DNA from: Porphyrobacter sp.
GTDB taxonomy: Bacteria; Pseudomonadota; Alphaproteobacteria; Sphingomonadales; Sphingomonadaceae
Length of the DNA stretch: 64,000 bases
Assembly: GCA_017744315.1 (NCBI GenBank)
Contig: JAGIBN010000001.1
Coordinates: 248,001-312,000, forward strand
Direction: 5' to 3'
Below are positions 27,846 to 38,014 of the stretch, one piece after another. A program made the translations under genes and the position numbers. Position 1 is the stretch's first letter. Every line of letters starts with the position of its first letter. Under the pieces are notes generated by a model. It was not told the origin of the DNA. It searched no databases and saw only the letters and a list, made by a program, of their open reading frames with translations.

Positions 27846-28361
27846 GTGGGGCAGGTCCACTTCGAGAACGAAATGCTGCTGGCGGACCTGACCGCCAAGC
27901 AGCGCGACGTGCTCGACCTGCTGATCGAGCACAAGACATCGAAAGAGATCGCCCGGCTGCTGGAGATATCTCCGCATACGGTCGATCAGCGGATCCAGTT
28001 CGCCAAGGACAAGCTCGGCGCCCGTTCGCGCAACGAGGCTGCGGCCGTCTACCGCCGGCTCGTCGAGACATACGGGCAAATGACATACGAGAATTCCTGT
28101 ATCGCGCCGCAGGACATTGCGTTGGACAACGGCCCCGGGACGCAGGGTCCGCCCCCCAATTGTAGCCTTGGGGGGCGGATTCAATCCGGCCAGCCCGACA
28201 GCGCCGAGGTGGATTACCGGGTCGTCCCAGAGTTGTTCGACGGACGTTACGGTACGTTGGTCAGGCTGGGAGCGATTGTGGTGATCGCTGTATTCCTCGT
28301 CTTTCTCGTGCTGGGCGGACTGGCCATCTTCTCTCAGCTCTCGGAGCTGATGGCCGCGTAG
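27846..28361 (+). CDS. LuxR-type HTH regulator with C-terminal TM helix
   Basis: LTAKQRDVLDLLIEHKTSKEIARLLEISPHTVDQRIQFAKDKLGARSRNEAA; C-terminal GAIVVIAVFLVFLVLGGLAIF. Confidence 0.85.
   Translation: MGQVHFENEMLLADLTAKQRDVLDLLIEHKTSKEIARLLEISPHTVDQRIQFAKDKLGARSRNEAAAVYRRLVETYGQMTYENSCIAPQDIALDNGPGTQGPPPNCSLGGRIQSGQPDSAEVDYRVVPELFDGRYGTLVRLGAIVVIAVFLVFLVLGGLAIFSQLSELMAA
28148..28179. repeat. 12-bp perfect hairpin inside the LuxR-type CDS
   Basis: tccgccccccaa-ttgtagcc-ttggggggcgga. Confidence 0.75.
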
Positions 28362-29226: not shown

Positions 29227-29317
29227 GCCGAGCTGATCCCGGGGAAACCGCAATCCGCCGGCACTGGACAGAGTGCGCAGCCATCACTAGCGCCAGCCCC
29301 GGGAGAGGGAGGGACGC

Positions 29318-30637
29318 ATTTCTAGATTTGGCTGGCTGGTCGCCGCCGCACTTGCGGTGGGGACGCCCTGCGTTGCGCAGGATTCATCAGACGATTCCAT
29401 TAAACTGAGCGCGGTCGAGCTGTTCGATTTCGCCGATCGCACGCGCGATGCCGGGGACTTTGCCACGGCCGAGACCGCATACCTGGCGCTAGCGCAGGAT
29501 CCCGATCTCGAATTGAGGACAGAGGCTCGCTTCCGCCTTGCGCTGATGTATGCCGACAAGATGGATCGCAAGCGTGACGCAGCCGTCCTCCTGCGCAGAA
29601 TTCTCGACGACAAGCCCGATGCCGCGCCGGTCAGGCTCAAGCTGGCGCAAGTCCTGGCCGAACTGGGCGAATACCAGTCGGCGCGGCGCGAATTGCGTGC
29701 GGTGCAGGCCGGCGGATTGCCGCCCGATGTCGCGCAACTGGTACGCTTCTATTCCAATGCCCTGAGCGCCACGAAACGCCTTGGCGGCAGTCTCGATATC
29801 GCCATCGCGCCCAGCACCAATATCAATCGCGCTACCCGTTCCGATACGCTCGGTACCGTGATCGGCGACTTCACGCTCAGCGAAGACGCGCAAGCGCAGT
29901 CGGGCGTCGGTCTTGCGCTCAAGGCGCAAGGGTATGGTCGCGTTCCGCTCAATGCGAAGACCGATCTGCTCGTGCGGTTGAACGCGGCGGGCGACCTCTA
30001 TCGCCGGTCCGAGTTCGACGATGTCACGCTGTCGGTGCAGGCCGGTCCGCAGTTCATTTCGGGACGCGATCGGCTCGCGCTCTCATTGACGGCCGGGCAC
30101 CGGTGGTACGGTCTCGATCCCTATTCTGTGTTCTATGGCGTGTCGGGCAACTGGGACCATCCGCTCGACGACAAGACCCAGATCCGCATCGATGCGAGCG
30201 CGCTCAAGGATGACAACTCGGTCAACCGCTTGCAGGACGCCGATCGTTTCACCGCCGCCGTGGGCCTGGATCGAGCTTTCAGCAGCACCACAGGCGGGGG
30301 CGTGCGCGTGTTCGGTTCGCGCGACGACGCTCGCGATCCGGGCTATTCGAACACTTCGGGCGGGGGCAGCGTTTATCTCTACCAGGACGTGGCGCGTACC
30401 ACGATGGTGGTCAACGCGGCCTATCGCCGGCTGGAGTCCGACGCGCGGCTGTTCCTCTATCCGGAGCGGCGCAAAGACGACAATCTCGACCTCTCGCTCT
30501 CGGCGACGTTCCGTAGCCTGACGATCGGTACTTTCGCCCCGCTCACGCGTGTGCGGTACGAGCGAAACTGGTCGACGGTTGGGATCTACGATTACGACCG
30601 CCTCGCATTCGAGTTCGGGGTGGTTTCAGCCTTCTAG
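29318..30637 (+). CDS. Surface lipoprotein assembly modifier (Slam/DUF560-like), TPR plus beta-barrel; apparent ATT start
   Basis: TPR-like N-domain (ELFDFADRTRDAGDFATAETAYLALAQDPDLELRTEARFRLALMYADKMDRKRDAAVLLRRIL), C-terminal barrel ending in aromatic residue (FGVVSAF); followed by a TbpB-like lipoprotein. GTG at 29357 is the first canonical start but lies inside the signal peptide. Confidence 0.8.
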   Translation: MSRFGWLVAAALAVGTPCVAQDSSDDSIKLSAVELFDFADRTRDAGDFATAETAYLALAQDPDLELRTEARFRLALMYADKMDRKRDAAVLLRRILDDKPDAAPVRLKLAQVLAELGEYQSARRELRAVQAGGLPPDVAQLVRFYSNALSATKRLGGSLDIAIAPSTNINRATRSDTLGTVIGDFTLSEDAQAQSGVGLALKAQGYGRVPLNAKTDLLVRLNAAGDLYRRSEFDDVTLSVQAGPQFISGRDRLALSLTAGHRWYGLDPYSVFYGVSGNWDHPLDDKTQIRIDASALKDDNSVNRLQDADRFTAAVGLDRAFSSTTGGGVRVFGSRDDARDPGYSNTSGGGSVYLYQDVARTTMVVNAAYRRLESDARLFLYPERRKDDNLDLSLSATFRSLTIGTFAPLTRVRYERNWSTVGIYDYDRLAFEFGVVSAF

Positions 30638-30728
30638 GAGGATCCGGCAAAGGGCTGTCGGAAATTGACAATTGGCAAGTTGTCCGCGCCGCGCGATCAA
30701 GCGGTTCGGGGGAATAATGGGGGATTAT

Positions 30729-33353
30729 ATGAAGTTGGGACGTCTTGCGGCGAATGCGTCGGTGCTTTCGCTTGGGCTCATGCTGGCAGCTTGCGGTGGG
30801 GGTGGTGGGGTCAATTCGACGCCTGCTCCAGTGCCAAGCCCATCGCCGAGCCCCGGCCCGAGCCCCACTCCAACTCCAACGCCGTCTGCGATAAACGACG
30901 ACCTGTTGCTGCCGCTGGCGAGCGAGACATTTACAAATGCAGCCTCGCGTGCGTCCGCCACGTTCAACGCGAATGGCACCAGCGGCACGAACGGCGCCAT
31001 TTCTGCCACGATCAGTTTCAACGCGAGCAACAATACCTATGCTTTGACGACACCAACTGGCTCGATCTCGTTTGGCCCAGGAGACATCGACACGGCCCAG
31101 AGCAGCGCGGGCGGCGTAGTCTATGTGAAGGAGTCGGGAAGCCGGACAGACTCGCTGACTGTCACACGCCCGGGCACCTCGGGCAGAATAACCTACCAGT
31201 ACGTCGGCGGTGCTTTCTGGCAGCGCACCACAGTTGGTTCGAACACGGCGTCGGGCTCGATCGATTCCCTAGTATATGGCGTGGAAACGCCTTCTGGCTC
31301 GGTCCCGCGCACTGGTTCGGCCAATTACCTCGTGGACCTGGTGGGAGCGATATCGACCGCCGACAATCTGTTCTCGCTTACCGGTCAGGGAAGCACTTCC
31401 GTAGATTTCTCTACGGGCCAGGTTCTTGTCGTTGGCGTAATAGACATGGTGCCCCTCCTTGGGAAATCTGCACAGTTTGACGGATCCGCACAGCTTTCGT
31501 CGACCTCGGGACAGTTCAGCGGCACTATGTCTTTCGACGATTTTGGACGATTTGATGGCCAACTTTCCGGAATGCTGTTCGGACCTCACGCCGAGGAGAT
31601 TGGGGCTAGTTGGTCGGTCAAGGATTCAACCGGTCGTGTCGCGGTCGGCGCACTGCTCGGGCGCGAGGGCAACGATGATTTCGGCAATGACTCATTTAGC
31701 CCAGATCCCATCAATCAGTTGGCCAACAGCCAGACGTTCGACACGGAAGAGGCAGTGCTTCGCTTCCAGTTTGACGATCGGATCGGCTACAACCAGCAGG
31801 TCGGTGATCTGACGCGCATCTCATCGAAGATCGATCCTCTCAAAATCCGCTATGAAGAAGTGACCGACAGCTACTCGCTTTTGGCTGCTGGCATATTCGG
31901 CACTTACGACAATTCGAGCCAGAGCTTCACCGGGCTGGGGCCGGCGACCCAGGCAAGCTGGGACCGGGGGACGCAGAGCGTTCGCGGAGTTCCCTTGTCC
32001 TATTTGCGAGCGCGCGAATGGACCAATGCCGATGGGATCAACGGTACGAACGACTACCGTGTTTCGCACCATGTTTACGGGATGCCGACAGCTCAGGCCG
32101 ATCTCGTCCGTACCGGTACAGCGGGTTACCGGATCGAGTTGTCCGGCATGGCTGCCGATGGTGCGTATCGCAATCCCATGCGTATCAGTGGCTTGGGTGA
32201 CCTCTACGTCGATCTCGCAGCTGGGAGAGTCTCGGGCTATGCGCCTCTGGAATACCGGGAAGCCGGTGGTCTGTCGGGCCTGTTTCCTGTCACCGTGCTT
32301 GGCTCCTGGCGCTACTCGGCCGAGCTTGCGGCGGATAAGAACGCGTTCGCCGGAACGGTCGAGATGGACGGCCTGGGAACTTATCTCGGGACTGGATCGG
32401 GCAAATTCTACGGACCGGACGCCGATGAAGTCGGCGGGGTATTCTCAACCAGCGAGACCGGCGGCGGTGCGGCCACCGGATATTTCGTCGGCTATCGTGA
32501 CGACACGGTTCGCGACCCCAGCAATAATGGTGTCCTGCCCTTGGCGGACTTGCCCGGCCAGACCAATCTCGCTTTCAAGTACCGTGATGACATTCAAACT
32601 GTTGCCGACATCAAGAACATTTCTTTCGATCCGGTCGGCCATACGTACAGGGTGTCTTTCCAACCTTTCGGCATGATGAATCCGCCGACGAACATTGTCA
32701 CCTTCTCGGATGCTGAGCGCGATTCTGCGGCCAGTACCGGCGACATCGACCTGTATCGAACGGCCTACCTCACCTATCCGACGGTTGTCCGTAAGCTCTC
32801 GCCGAACGCGTCGGTGGCGTTGAGCTATGCATCGTTTGCCGAGATTTCGATCCAACTCTACCCGGCGAACAAGTATTACGACGCGATCTACTATGCGGTT
32901 TTCGGTAACCAGACCATTCAGATGCCGCGCACCGGGACGGCTTCATATGGCGGGTTGGCGATGGGCTCCGTCGAAGTTCAAGCGTCGAGCCCGTCTGGAT
33001 GGGAATACGACATCTACAACGTTCTCGGAACGTCGGGTTTGAGCGTCAATTTCGGGGCCGGATCGTTCGTGCTGACGATCGACGGCCTGGGCGGTGATCG
33101 CGTCTACGCGGGGGCGAACAGGCCGGGCCACGATACCGTCTTGTTCCCGACCATGGAATTCAATGGATTGATTTCGGGCGCGTCAATGTCGGGAAGCGAC
33201 GTTGATCGATCATTCAACGGGAGCTTCTTCGGGCCGAATGCTGAGGAGTTTTCGGGCGTTTTCAGGACGAATAACGTTAAGCCGGCGAGCCTGAATTTGG
33301 ATCCCAACCAACTTGTGACTGTCACCGGAGTGGCCGCCGGAAAGAAGAACTGA
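30729..33353 (+). CDS. Large lipoprotein with three TbpB-like barrel motifs (putative Slam client)
   Basis: MKLGRLAANASVLSLGLMLAACGGGGG lipobox; Pro/Ser/Thr linker; three GxhhGPxAxEhxG motifs (LFGPHAEEIGASW, FYGPDADEVGGVF, FFGPNAEEFSGVF). Confidence 0.85.
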   Translation: MKLGRLAANASVLSLGLMLAACGGGGGVNSTPAPVPSPSPSPGPSPTPTPTPSAINDDLLLPLASETFTNAASRASATFNANGTSGTNGAISATISFNASNNTYALTTPTGSISFGPGDIDTAQSSAGGVVYVKESGSRTDSLTVTRPGTSGRITYQYVGGAFWQRTTVGSNTASGSIDSLVYGVETPSGSVPRTGSANYLVDLVGAISTADNLFSLTGQGSTSVDFSTGQVLVVGVIDMVPLLGKSAQFDGSAQLSSTSGQFSGTMSFDDFGRFDGQLSGMLFGPHAEEIGASWSVKDSTGRVAVGALLGREGNDDFGNDSFSPDPINQLANSQTFDTEEAVLRFQFDDRIGYNQQVGDLTRISSKIDPLKIRYEEVTDSYSLLAAGIFGTYDNSSQSFTGLGPATQASWDRGTQSVRGVPLSYLRAREWTNADGINGTNDYRVSHHVYGMPTAQADLVRTGTAGYRIELSGMAADGAYRNPMRISGLGDLYVDLAAGRVSGYAPLEYREAGGLSGLFPVTVLGSWRYSAELAADKNAFAGTVEMDGLGTYLGTGSGKFYGPDADEVGGVFSTSETGGGAATGYFVGYRDDTVRDPSNNGVLPLADLPGQTNLAFKYRDDIQTVADIKNISFDPVGHTYRVSFQPFGMMNPPTNIVTFSDAERDSAASTGDIDLYRTAYLTYPTVVRKLSPNASVALSYASFAEISIQLYPANKYYDAIYYAVFGNQTIQMPRTGTASYGGLAMGSVEVQASSPSGWEYDIYNVLGTSGLSVNFGAGSFVLTIDGLGGDRVYAGANRPGHDTVLFPTMEFNGLISGASMSGSDVDRSFNGSFFGPNAEEFSGVFRTNNVKPASLNLDPNQLVTVTGVAAGKKN

Positions 33354-36390: not shown

Positions 36391-36500
36391 GGGATGTGAT
36401 TTCTTGGAGGCAGTAGCTAAATCGGCCGGAAACTAGATACTTGCAAGGGAAGGAAAATCGTTGTCCAAGAGTCGCCTAAGGGCGTTATTGGGGGGATTTG

Positions 36501-37355
36501 ATGGCTCGTCGTCACAAGATGGAAGTTGGCGGACTAAATGTTCGCGTCCATCCGCACTCAGAAGACATATATCGTGACTTGATTCATGATCTCTATAAGC
36601 TCCGTAGGATTGCCAAGATACATGGCGATCGGCATGGCTTAATTACTACGTTGGACCGAAGAAGTCGTGAGCCTGTAGTGGGTGGAATTATTACAACCTT
36701 TCTTGAAATAGATTCCGCAGGAGAATGGTTCAATACTGAGACGATGAAGGAGGCGTCAGATAACGAGATAGAGGCAATAGTCATACCAGATAATTTGAGG
36801 CCAAATGCTAAGTCATTTAGATTTCAATTTGATGTGGTTAGACATGAGCTTGTGTTTGAGCATTATTCGGAAGGCGACGTTCTAACTCATAATTCGGCAT
36901 TGAAGTTTTTTAAAAATCTAACAAATGTTAGATCTATAGGAAACAAGTTTGGGTTGGTGGATGTAAACATCATTCAATCAAGAGGAAGTGCTGAGAAAAT
37001 CTTTTCAATCCCTAGGATAACTGACTTGGAAATTCTTATCGAAAAGCCAAATGCAGATATTTGGGGTGAGGATTTTGAGGAGCAGGCCGAAGAGCATCTT
37101 GACGAAAAGAATGCTCGTTCGATGCGGGTTTCCTATAAATCGGAGGCTGGGCAGGGAATTAGGAGAGACGTCGAGTTGGAGGCGTTGATTAGGGCAAGTG
37201 TAAATAACGGTCGTTCTGTTGCTAAGGGATACGGACCAAATGGTCATTTGATCGTTAGCACTGATTCATATCCTAGAGTTGAGCAGGAGACCTACGAGCC
37301 CGATGAGGCCCCGTCTCAGGTGTTCGCGAGGCTTGCCCGGATATTTAGGCGGTAA
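36501..37355 (+). CDS. DUF4747-like protein
   Basis: MARRHKMEVGGLNVRVHPHSEDIYRDLIHDLYKLRR...RFQFDVVRHELVFEHYS; AT-rich, different codon usage from neighbours. Confidence 0.6.
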   Translation: MARRHKMEVGGLNVRVHPHSEDIYRDLIHDLYKLRRIAKIHGDRHGLITTLDRRSREPVVGGIITTFLEIDSAGEWFNTETMKEASDNEIEAIVIPDNLRPNAKSFRFQFDVVRHELVFEHYSEGDVLTHNSALKFFKNLTNVRSIGNKFGLVDVNIIQSRGSAEKIFSIPRITDLEILIEKPNADIWGEDFEEQAEEHLDEKNARSMRVSYKSEAGQGIRRDVELEALIRASVNNGRSVAKGYGPNGHLIVSTDSYPRVEQETYEPDEAPSQVFARLARIFRR

Positions 37356-37357
37356 TC

Positions 37358-38014
37358 GTGTATAGAGATACCATTAGGGCTTTTAGCCAATACTGGAAAG
37401 AGTATGGGGGTTTCCGGGATCTCATAAGGTCCCCCTTTGCACACTTTAGTTTTATTGTGACGGTTTTATACGCGGCGGGACTTTTGGAGATTGAGTGGCG
37501 AGAGGTTGTCCGGGACTCGCTACCGACGATCTTGGGTTTCAGTTTGGCGGCGTACACAATCACATTTACGCTTATGGGAAGTGCTCTTCATCGCGCGTTA
37601 ACAGTAGCCATCGATAAGAAAACTGGTCATAAGCTAATAAGAATTGTTAATGCGACATTTTTCCATGTGGTTGTATTTCAGGCCATCGCCTTGCTATATG
37701 CCCTTTTGACGAAGGGATCATTGGTTCCATCAATAGTCTCTTGGACTGTAAATGATGATCAAGTGGCGGCTTGGATTAATGTAAGGGTCTATTTTTGGGG
37801 CGACGTGATTGGCTGCTTTTTTGCCGTTTATGCGTTTTTCCTGCTTTTGTCGGTAGGGTTGGCGATGTTCAGGTTGGGACGGATCTCGCCTCCAGTCGTG
37901 GCCTCCAGCAGGGGCGTCCCCGAGCACTCGCAGGAATCAGAACCTCCAGTAGTCAGGACTTTGCGCTTCAAGTTTGTTGTGTGGCTTTCTAAACGCCTTC
38001 GGCTTTACGACTAG
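37358..38014 (+). CDS. Hypothetical multi-TM membrane protein, 2 bp after the upstream stop
   Basis: Hydrophobic segments HFSFIVTVLYAAGLL, LGFSLAAYTITFTLMGSAL, HVVVFQAIALLYALL, GCFFAVYAFFLLLSVGLAMF; GTG start 37358. Confidence 0.75.
   Translation: MYRDTIRAFSQYWKEYGGFRDLIRSPFAHFSFIVTVLYAAGLLEIEWREVVRDSLPTILGFSLAAYTITFTLMGSALHRALTVAIDKKTGHKLIRIVNATFFHVVVFQAIALLYALLTKGSLVPSIVSWTVNDDQVAAWINVRVYFWGDVIGCFFAVYAFFLLLSVGLAMFRLGRISPPVVASSRGVPEHSQESEPPVVRTLRFKFVVWLSKRLRLYD

What the first reader, a model, noticed from the sequence alone, without database searches (positions are those of the whole stretch)
29318..33353. Orphan Slam (type XI secretion)-like gene paired with a large TbpB-like lipoprotein
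Seen: a TPR plus beta-barrel protein is followed directly, same strand, by a lipoprotein with a LAAC-GGGGG lipobox and three G-x-h-h-G-P-x-A-x-E motifs. Known: Slam proteins (DUF560) move TbpB-like barrel lipoproteins to the cell surface, often beside a TonB receptor. Inference: this is a surface-lipoprotein export pair of unknown ligand. No TonB receptor is adjacent; the next gene is uvrA.
Basis: partly seen in the sequence, partly recalled or inferred. Interest (0 to 1): 0.75.

Follow-up and report, generated by a model that had tools for sequence, protein, structure and literature searches.

The report
Surface-lipoprotein exporter with three-module cargo
Two neighbouring genes in a sphingomonad bacterium encode an outer-membrane exporter (Slam, type XI secretion) and a large surface lipoprotein built from three transferrin-binding-protein-like modules; the pair is real, but its kind has already been described.

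Summary
Gene 29318-30637 is a Slam/DUF560 protein (PF04575 E 4e-13; predicted TPR region plus 14-strand barrel). Gene 30717-33353 is a lipoprotein with three TbpB-type handle-barrel modules (PF01298 E 2e-17; Foldseek top hits TbpB/LbpB). The kind is known: Grossman et al. described a Sphingomonadaceae T11SS subcluster 1C (2021) and a multi-barrel 'Sphingomonas surface protein' cargo with a Pro-Thr N-terminus (2025), which this cargo matches. What I add: (1) the genome has one Slam but three cargo genes, two on other contigs, one of these directly upstream of a TonB receptor; (2) 72 of 82 sphingomonad Slam loci have an adjacent cargo, in a size ladder of 1 (~330 aa), 2 (~600) or 3 (~890) modules; (3) modules group by position in a tree, so the three-module form is old and the C-terminal module is a distinct lineage; (4) the pair sits in a slot before uvrA that is empty in one congener and holds Slam (90% identical) without cargo in another. 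Export is well supported by homology; the ligand is unknown. A new member of a known kind, of modest interest.

The parts
29300..29320 (+). Ribosome-binding stretch GGGAGAGGGAGGGACGC followed by the probable ATT start codon (29318-29320) of Slam
   Evidence: Only start option upstream of the signal peptide; the same layout, GGGAGGGGCGC-ATT, in congener G201
29318..30637 (+). Slam / T11SS outer-membrane protein, 439 aa: signal peptide, TPR region (about 29411-29767), 14-strand barrel (about 29780-30634)
   Evidence: PF04575 3.9e-13 and TPR_Slam 6.9e-6; AlphaFold2 pLDDT 79.8
30717..33353 (+). Cargo lipoprotein, 878 aa (start 30717 or the in-frame ATG at 30729)
   Evidence: PF01298 1.9e-17 in three stretches; NF041636 6e-16, below its cut-off; TbpB by profile and fold
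30792..30794 (+). Codon of the lipidated cysteine in LAAC-GGGGG
   Evidence: Sequence; cysteine and the next three glycines invariant in 17 homologues
30810..30887 (+). Pro/Ser/Thr-rich stalk
   Evidence: Sequence; predicted disordered; length varies among homologues
30912..31709 (+). Handle-barrel module 1 (limits approximate)
   Evidence: Model; similar to module 2, E 2e-14
31719..32516 (+). Handle-barrel module 2 (limits approximate)
   Evidence: Model and self-comparison
32544..33350 (+). Handle-barrel module 3, the probable export signal (limits approximate)
   Evidence: Best Pfam stretch; separate lineage in the module tree

Best explanation
This is a type XI secretion (Slam) locus. The lipoprotein is made with a signal peptide, lipidated on the cysteine of LAAC, carried to the outer membrane by Lol, held unfolded by a Skp-type chaperone and passed through the Slam barrel, so that it stays anchored by its lipid with three barrel modules standing out from the cell on a Pro/Thr stalk. 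The C-terminal module is probably the export signal; the first two are probably the ligand-binding or structural part. The same Slam probably also exports the two unlinked cargo lipoproteins, one of which probably works with the TonB receptor encoded next to it. Shown here: the architecture, by sequence and by models. Inferred from Neisseria and Moraxella Slam1/TbpB: the export steps. Inferred and weakly supported (about 0.4): a role in capturing a nutrient.
For: PF04575 and three PF01298 stretches; TPR plus 14 strands; TbpB/LbpB/NHBA/fHbp fold and profile match to TbpB 9e-18; cargo adjacent in 72 of 82 loci; barrel domain and Slam co-occur in 48 of 50 genomes; a single Slam with three cargos that share the CGGGGG start; OmpH/Skp homologue present; a cargo directly upstream of a TonB receptor.
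Against: No experiment. NF041636 stays below its cut-off. Two genomes have the barrel domain without a detected Slam. Nothing identifies a ligand. That one Slam serves all three cargos is not shown; another route could carry the unlinked ones.
Confidence: 0.88

Rival explanations
1. The TPR-barrel protein is an exopolysaccharide exporter of the BcsC/PgaA/PelB type and the lipoprotein is an unrelated surface protein.
For: BcsC is the top Foldseek hit of the Slam model, and PelB and AlgE also appear.
Against: 14 strands, not 16-18; PF04575 above its cut-off; no polysaccharide genes beside it; the TbpB-type lipoprotein is adjacent in 72 of 82 loci.
Confidence: 0.03
2. Export is as in the best explanation, but the lipoprotein is an adhesin or structural surface protein rather than a nutrient co-receptor.
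For: No TonB receptor at this locus. Long Pro/Thr stalk. Module number varies from one to three. Some T11SS cargos, such as NilC, are linked to host colonisation (PMC9100927, title and abstract).
Against: A paralogue sits beside a TonB receptor, and in G009 a run of cargo genes ends at a TonB receptor, which points to nutrient capture for at least some members.
Confidence: 0.4
3. The Slam is dedicated to its neighbour, and the two unlinked lipoproteins reach the surface by another route or face the periplasm.
For: In most relatives Slam and cargo are adjacent.
Against: This is the only Slam in the genome. Congener G201 has a 90% identical Slam with no adjacent cargo and a cargo 158 kb away. 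Modules of the unlinked cargos fall in the same clade as the last modules.
Confidence: 0.2

Closest known systems
'Sphingomonas surface protein' architecture of T11SS cargo (Grossman et al. 2025, PMC12282271)
   Same: Lipoprotein, Pro-Thr-rich N-terminal stretch, two to three handle-barrel pairs, next to a T11SS gene, in sphingomonads
   Different: Nothing tested here sets it apart; I could not compare sequences with the paper's own set
T11SS subcluster 1C, environmental Sphingomonadaceae (Grossman et al. 2021, PMC8406197)
   Same: DUF560 protein of an environmental sphingomonad lineage
   Different: Assignment to 1C is by taxonomy only; the similarity network was not rebuilt
Neisseria Slam1 with TbpB
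   Same: Exporter family, barrel fold of the cargo, lipid anchor
   Different: Three modules instead of two lobes, no TonB receptor beside the pair, no host transferrin expected
Psychrobacter surface proteins (PMC12282271)
   Same: Multiple TbpB_B_D domains after a proline-rich repeat stretch
   Different: PTD repeat and another lineage, according to the paper; not compared here

Membership tests
Slam / T11SS outer-membrane protein (PF04575) | DUF560/SlipAM domain above the curated cut-off | tested here: met
   50 bits v cut-off 22
Slam / T11SS outer-membrane protein (PF04575) | N-terminal TPR region and a 14-strand barrel | tested here: met
   TPR_Slam itself is 26.9 bits v cut-off 35.2
Slam / T11SS outer-membrane protein (PF04575) | Moves a cargo to the cell surface | not testable with these tools
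   Needs an exposure assay
Slam-dependent surface lipoprotein | Signal peptide with a lipobox | tested here: met
   LAAC-GGGGG, cysteine invariant in 17 homologues
Slam-dependent surface lipoprotein | C-terminal eight-strand TbpB-type barrel | tested here: met
   PF01298, profile, fold
Slam-dependent surface lipoprotein | NCBIfam NF041636 above its cut-off | tested here: not met
   59 bits v cut-off 80; the other sphingomonad cargos tested also fall below, so the model is narrower than the class
'Sphingomonas surface protein' class | Pro-Thr N-terminal stretch and two to three handle-barrel pairs beside a T11SS gene | tested here: met
   definition from PMC12282271
TbpB (transferrin co-receptor) | Two lobes and an adjacent TbpA receptor | tested here: not met
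   Three modules; no TonB receptor beside this pair. The fold is shared; identity as TbpB is not claimed

The most novel reading that the evidence does not exclude
Sphingomonads use a single conserved Slam as a shared export hub for a set of modular surface lipoproteins: one to three barrel modules, scattered in the genome, gained and lost at a fixed chromosomal slot, some paired with TonB receptors. The C-terminal module would then be a general export tag to which binding modules are added, in bacteria that meet environmental rather than host ligands.
Probability: 0.4. Interest if true: 0.5.

Novelty: new member of a known kind. Interest (0 to 1): 0.3.

Why it matters
The T11SS proteins verified by experiment all belong to the animal-associated cluster 1 (PMC12282271). 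A sphingomonad with one Slam and three cargo lipoproteins is a clean system for asking whether one Slam serves several cargos, which module is the export tag, and what such proteins bind outside an animal host. The finding itself is one more example of a described class.

Tried and rejected
B12 link: many relatives have a BtuB-like TonB receptor with periplasmic-binding and ABC genes on the far side of the M3 peptidase gene. But of 55 genomes where that receptor lies within 12 kb of the peptidase, 46 have no Slam, and this genome has no such receptor at E 1e-60. It is inherited gene order and not a Slam partner.

Exopolysaccharide-exporter reading of the barrel: rejected, see the rivals.

Counting cargo by whole-protein search: in Slam-minus genomes the matches are mostly the CGGGGG-PTPT stretch of other proteins of about 800 aa, so I used the Pfam barrel domain for co-occurrence instead.

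Four-module cargo (L133, 1028 aa): one example only, no lipobox found in its frame and only two Pfam stretches; not claimed.

Promoter and terminator scan: no better than shuffles. PADLOC: no hit for the pair or for the two genes after uvrA. Plasmids: two distant Novosphingobium hits only.

Full report
What is there. The window carries, on the + strand, a 439-aa protein (29318-30637) and, 79 bp later, an 878-aa lipoprotein (30717-33353), followed after 124 bp by uvrA. The first matches Slam/SlipAM (PF04575, 50 bits, cut-off 22) and has TPR repeats. The second matches TbpB_B_D (PF01298, 64 bits, cut-off 26) in three stretches and the C-terminal domain of factor-H-binding protein. The NCBIfam model for Slam-dependent lipoproteins also hits in three stretches, but below its cut-off (59 v 80 bits). 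The three FGPxAxE motifs are not chance: none appeared in 2000 shuffles.

Structure. AlphaFold2 with 22 Slam homologues gives a helical TPR region and then 14 strands (pLDDT 79.8); Foldseek finds BcsC and the porin OmpG first. With 17 cargo homologues the lipoprotein model (pLDDT 77.1) has a disordered stalk and three beta-rich modules. The closest solved structures are TbpB (7e-13) and LbpB, then haemophilin, NHBA and fHbp. Whole-chain TM-scores are low (about 0.2-0.3), as expected if the modules are arranged differently; single domains fit better (TbpB C-lobe 0.60, NHBA C-terminal domain 0.72, by target length). A profile from the alignment hits TbpB at 9e-18 by sequence alone, where the single sequence reached only 0.006.

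The rest of the genome. There is one Slam but three cargo proteins: this one, a 606-aa protein on contig C12 and a 645-aa protein on contig C11. All start C-G-G-G-G-G after the lipobox and continue with a Pro/Thr stretch. The C11 cargo lies 290 bp upstream of a 1041-aa TonB receptor. So a TonB partner exists, but beside a different cargo. The assembly is listed with 5% contamination; the two contigs are large (590 and 424 kb), and I did not test their origin further.

Relatives. Eighty Slam loci came from named records, and every one named to genus is a sphingomonad. They were screened with a barrel profile built from these and the earlier loci. Cargo proteins form a ladder: median 330 aa with one module, 604 with two, 893 with three. 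The profile is partly circular, being seeded from the same loci. An independent check with Pfam alone in 201 family genomes finds Slam in 48 of 50 genomes that have the barrel domain and in 14 of 151 that do not (Fisher P 5e-31, overstated because the genomes are related). Several genomes have one Slam and at least five cargo genes (G009, G030, G140).

History. In a tree of 61 modules, first, middle and last modules group by position: 3 changes where 2 is the least possible and shuffled labels need 29. The three-module form is therefore older than the split of these genera. The last modules form a distinct lineage (branch 0.7, support 98/98) that also takes in modules of the two unlinked cargos. 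This fits the published idea that the C-terminal barrel is the export signal. The locus is a conserved slot: M3 peptidase, a LigT-like gene, a LuxR-type regulator, a 149-aa hypothetical gene, then uvrA. In congener G081, which lacks Slam, that order is intact with about 1 kb before uvrA. In congener G201 the Slam is 90% identical, but no cargo is beside it and unrelated genes lie between it and uvrA; a cargo lies 158 kb away. So exporter and cargo have been gained or lost separately.

Start codon. The Slam gene appears to start with ATT at 29318 after GGGAGAGGGAGGGACGC. The congener has GGGAGGGGCGC-ATT at the same point; Croceibacterium seems to use TTG. A rare start would keep Slam synthesis low; this is inference.

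What is known. Slam proteins, their TbpB-type cargo and their frequent TonB partners are established (PMC5449769; PMC9090332). A Sphingomonadaceae subcluster 1C (PMC8406197) and 'Sphingomonas surface proteins' with Pro-Thr repeats and two to three handle-barrel pairs (PMC12282271) are published. This pair fits that class. I found no paper on the function of a sphingomonad member in the open-access library searched.

Verdict. The observation and its interpretation hold. It is a new member of a known kind. The modest new content is the single-Slam, multi-cargo layout, the module ladder with position-specific lineages, the variable slot before uvrA, and the ATT start.

Noticed in passing
window 29318-29320; L089:8530-8532: Probable ATT start codon of the Slam gene, with a strong ribosome-binding stretch, kept in a congener.
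   Followed up: partly
window 36498-38014: After uvrA, a DUF4747 gene (PF15931, 3.5e-48) and a 218-aa probable membrane protein; the DUF4747 gene is absent after uvrA in congener G201. No PADLOC hit.
   Followed up: partly
window 27846-28361; L008:10231-11067: A LuxR-type HTH protein lies upstream of the Slam pair, and another (GerE plus DUF4019) lies near the unlinked cargo on contig C11; possibly coincidence.
   Followed up: no
L127 (G009 contig C2:625000-641000; G009 is Croceibacterium xixiisoli by matching contig length): Six tandem one-module cargo lipoproteins on one strand, with a 1046-aa TonB receptor at the end of the run and no Slam beside them.
   Followed up: partly
L096, L097, L107, L112: BtuB-like TonB receptor with periplasmic-binding and ABC genes next to the M3 peptidase in many relatives, with or without Slam.
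   Followed up: yes
many family genomes (e.g. G113:C1:2109430-2109588): The CGGGGG-Pro/Thr lipoprotein N-terminus is shared with proteins of about 800 aa in genomes without Slam; their identity was not pursued.
   Followed up: no
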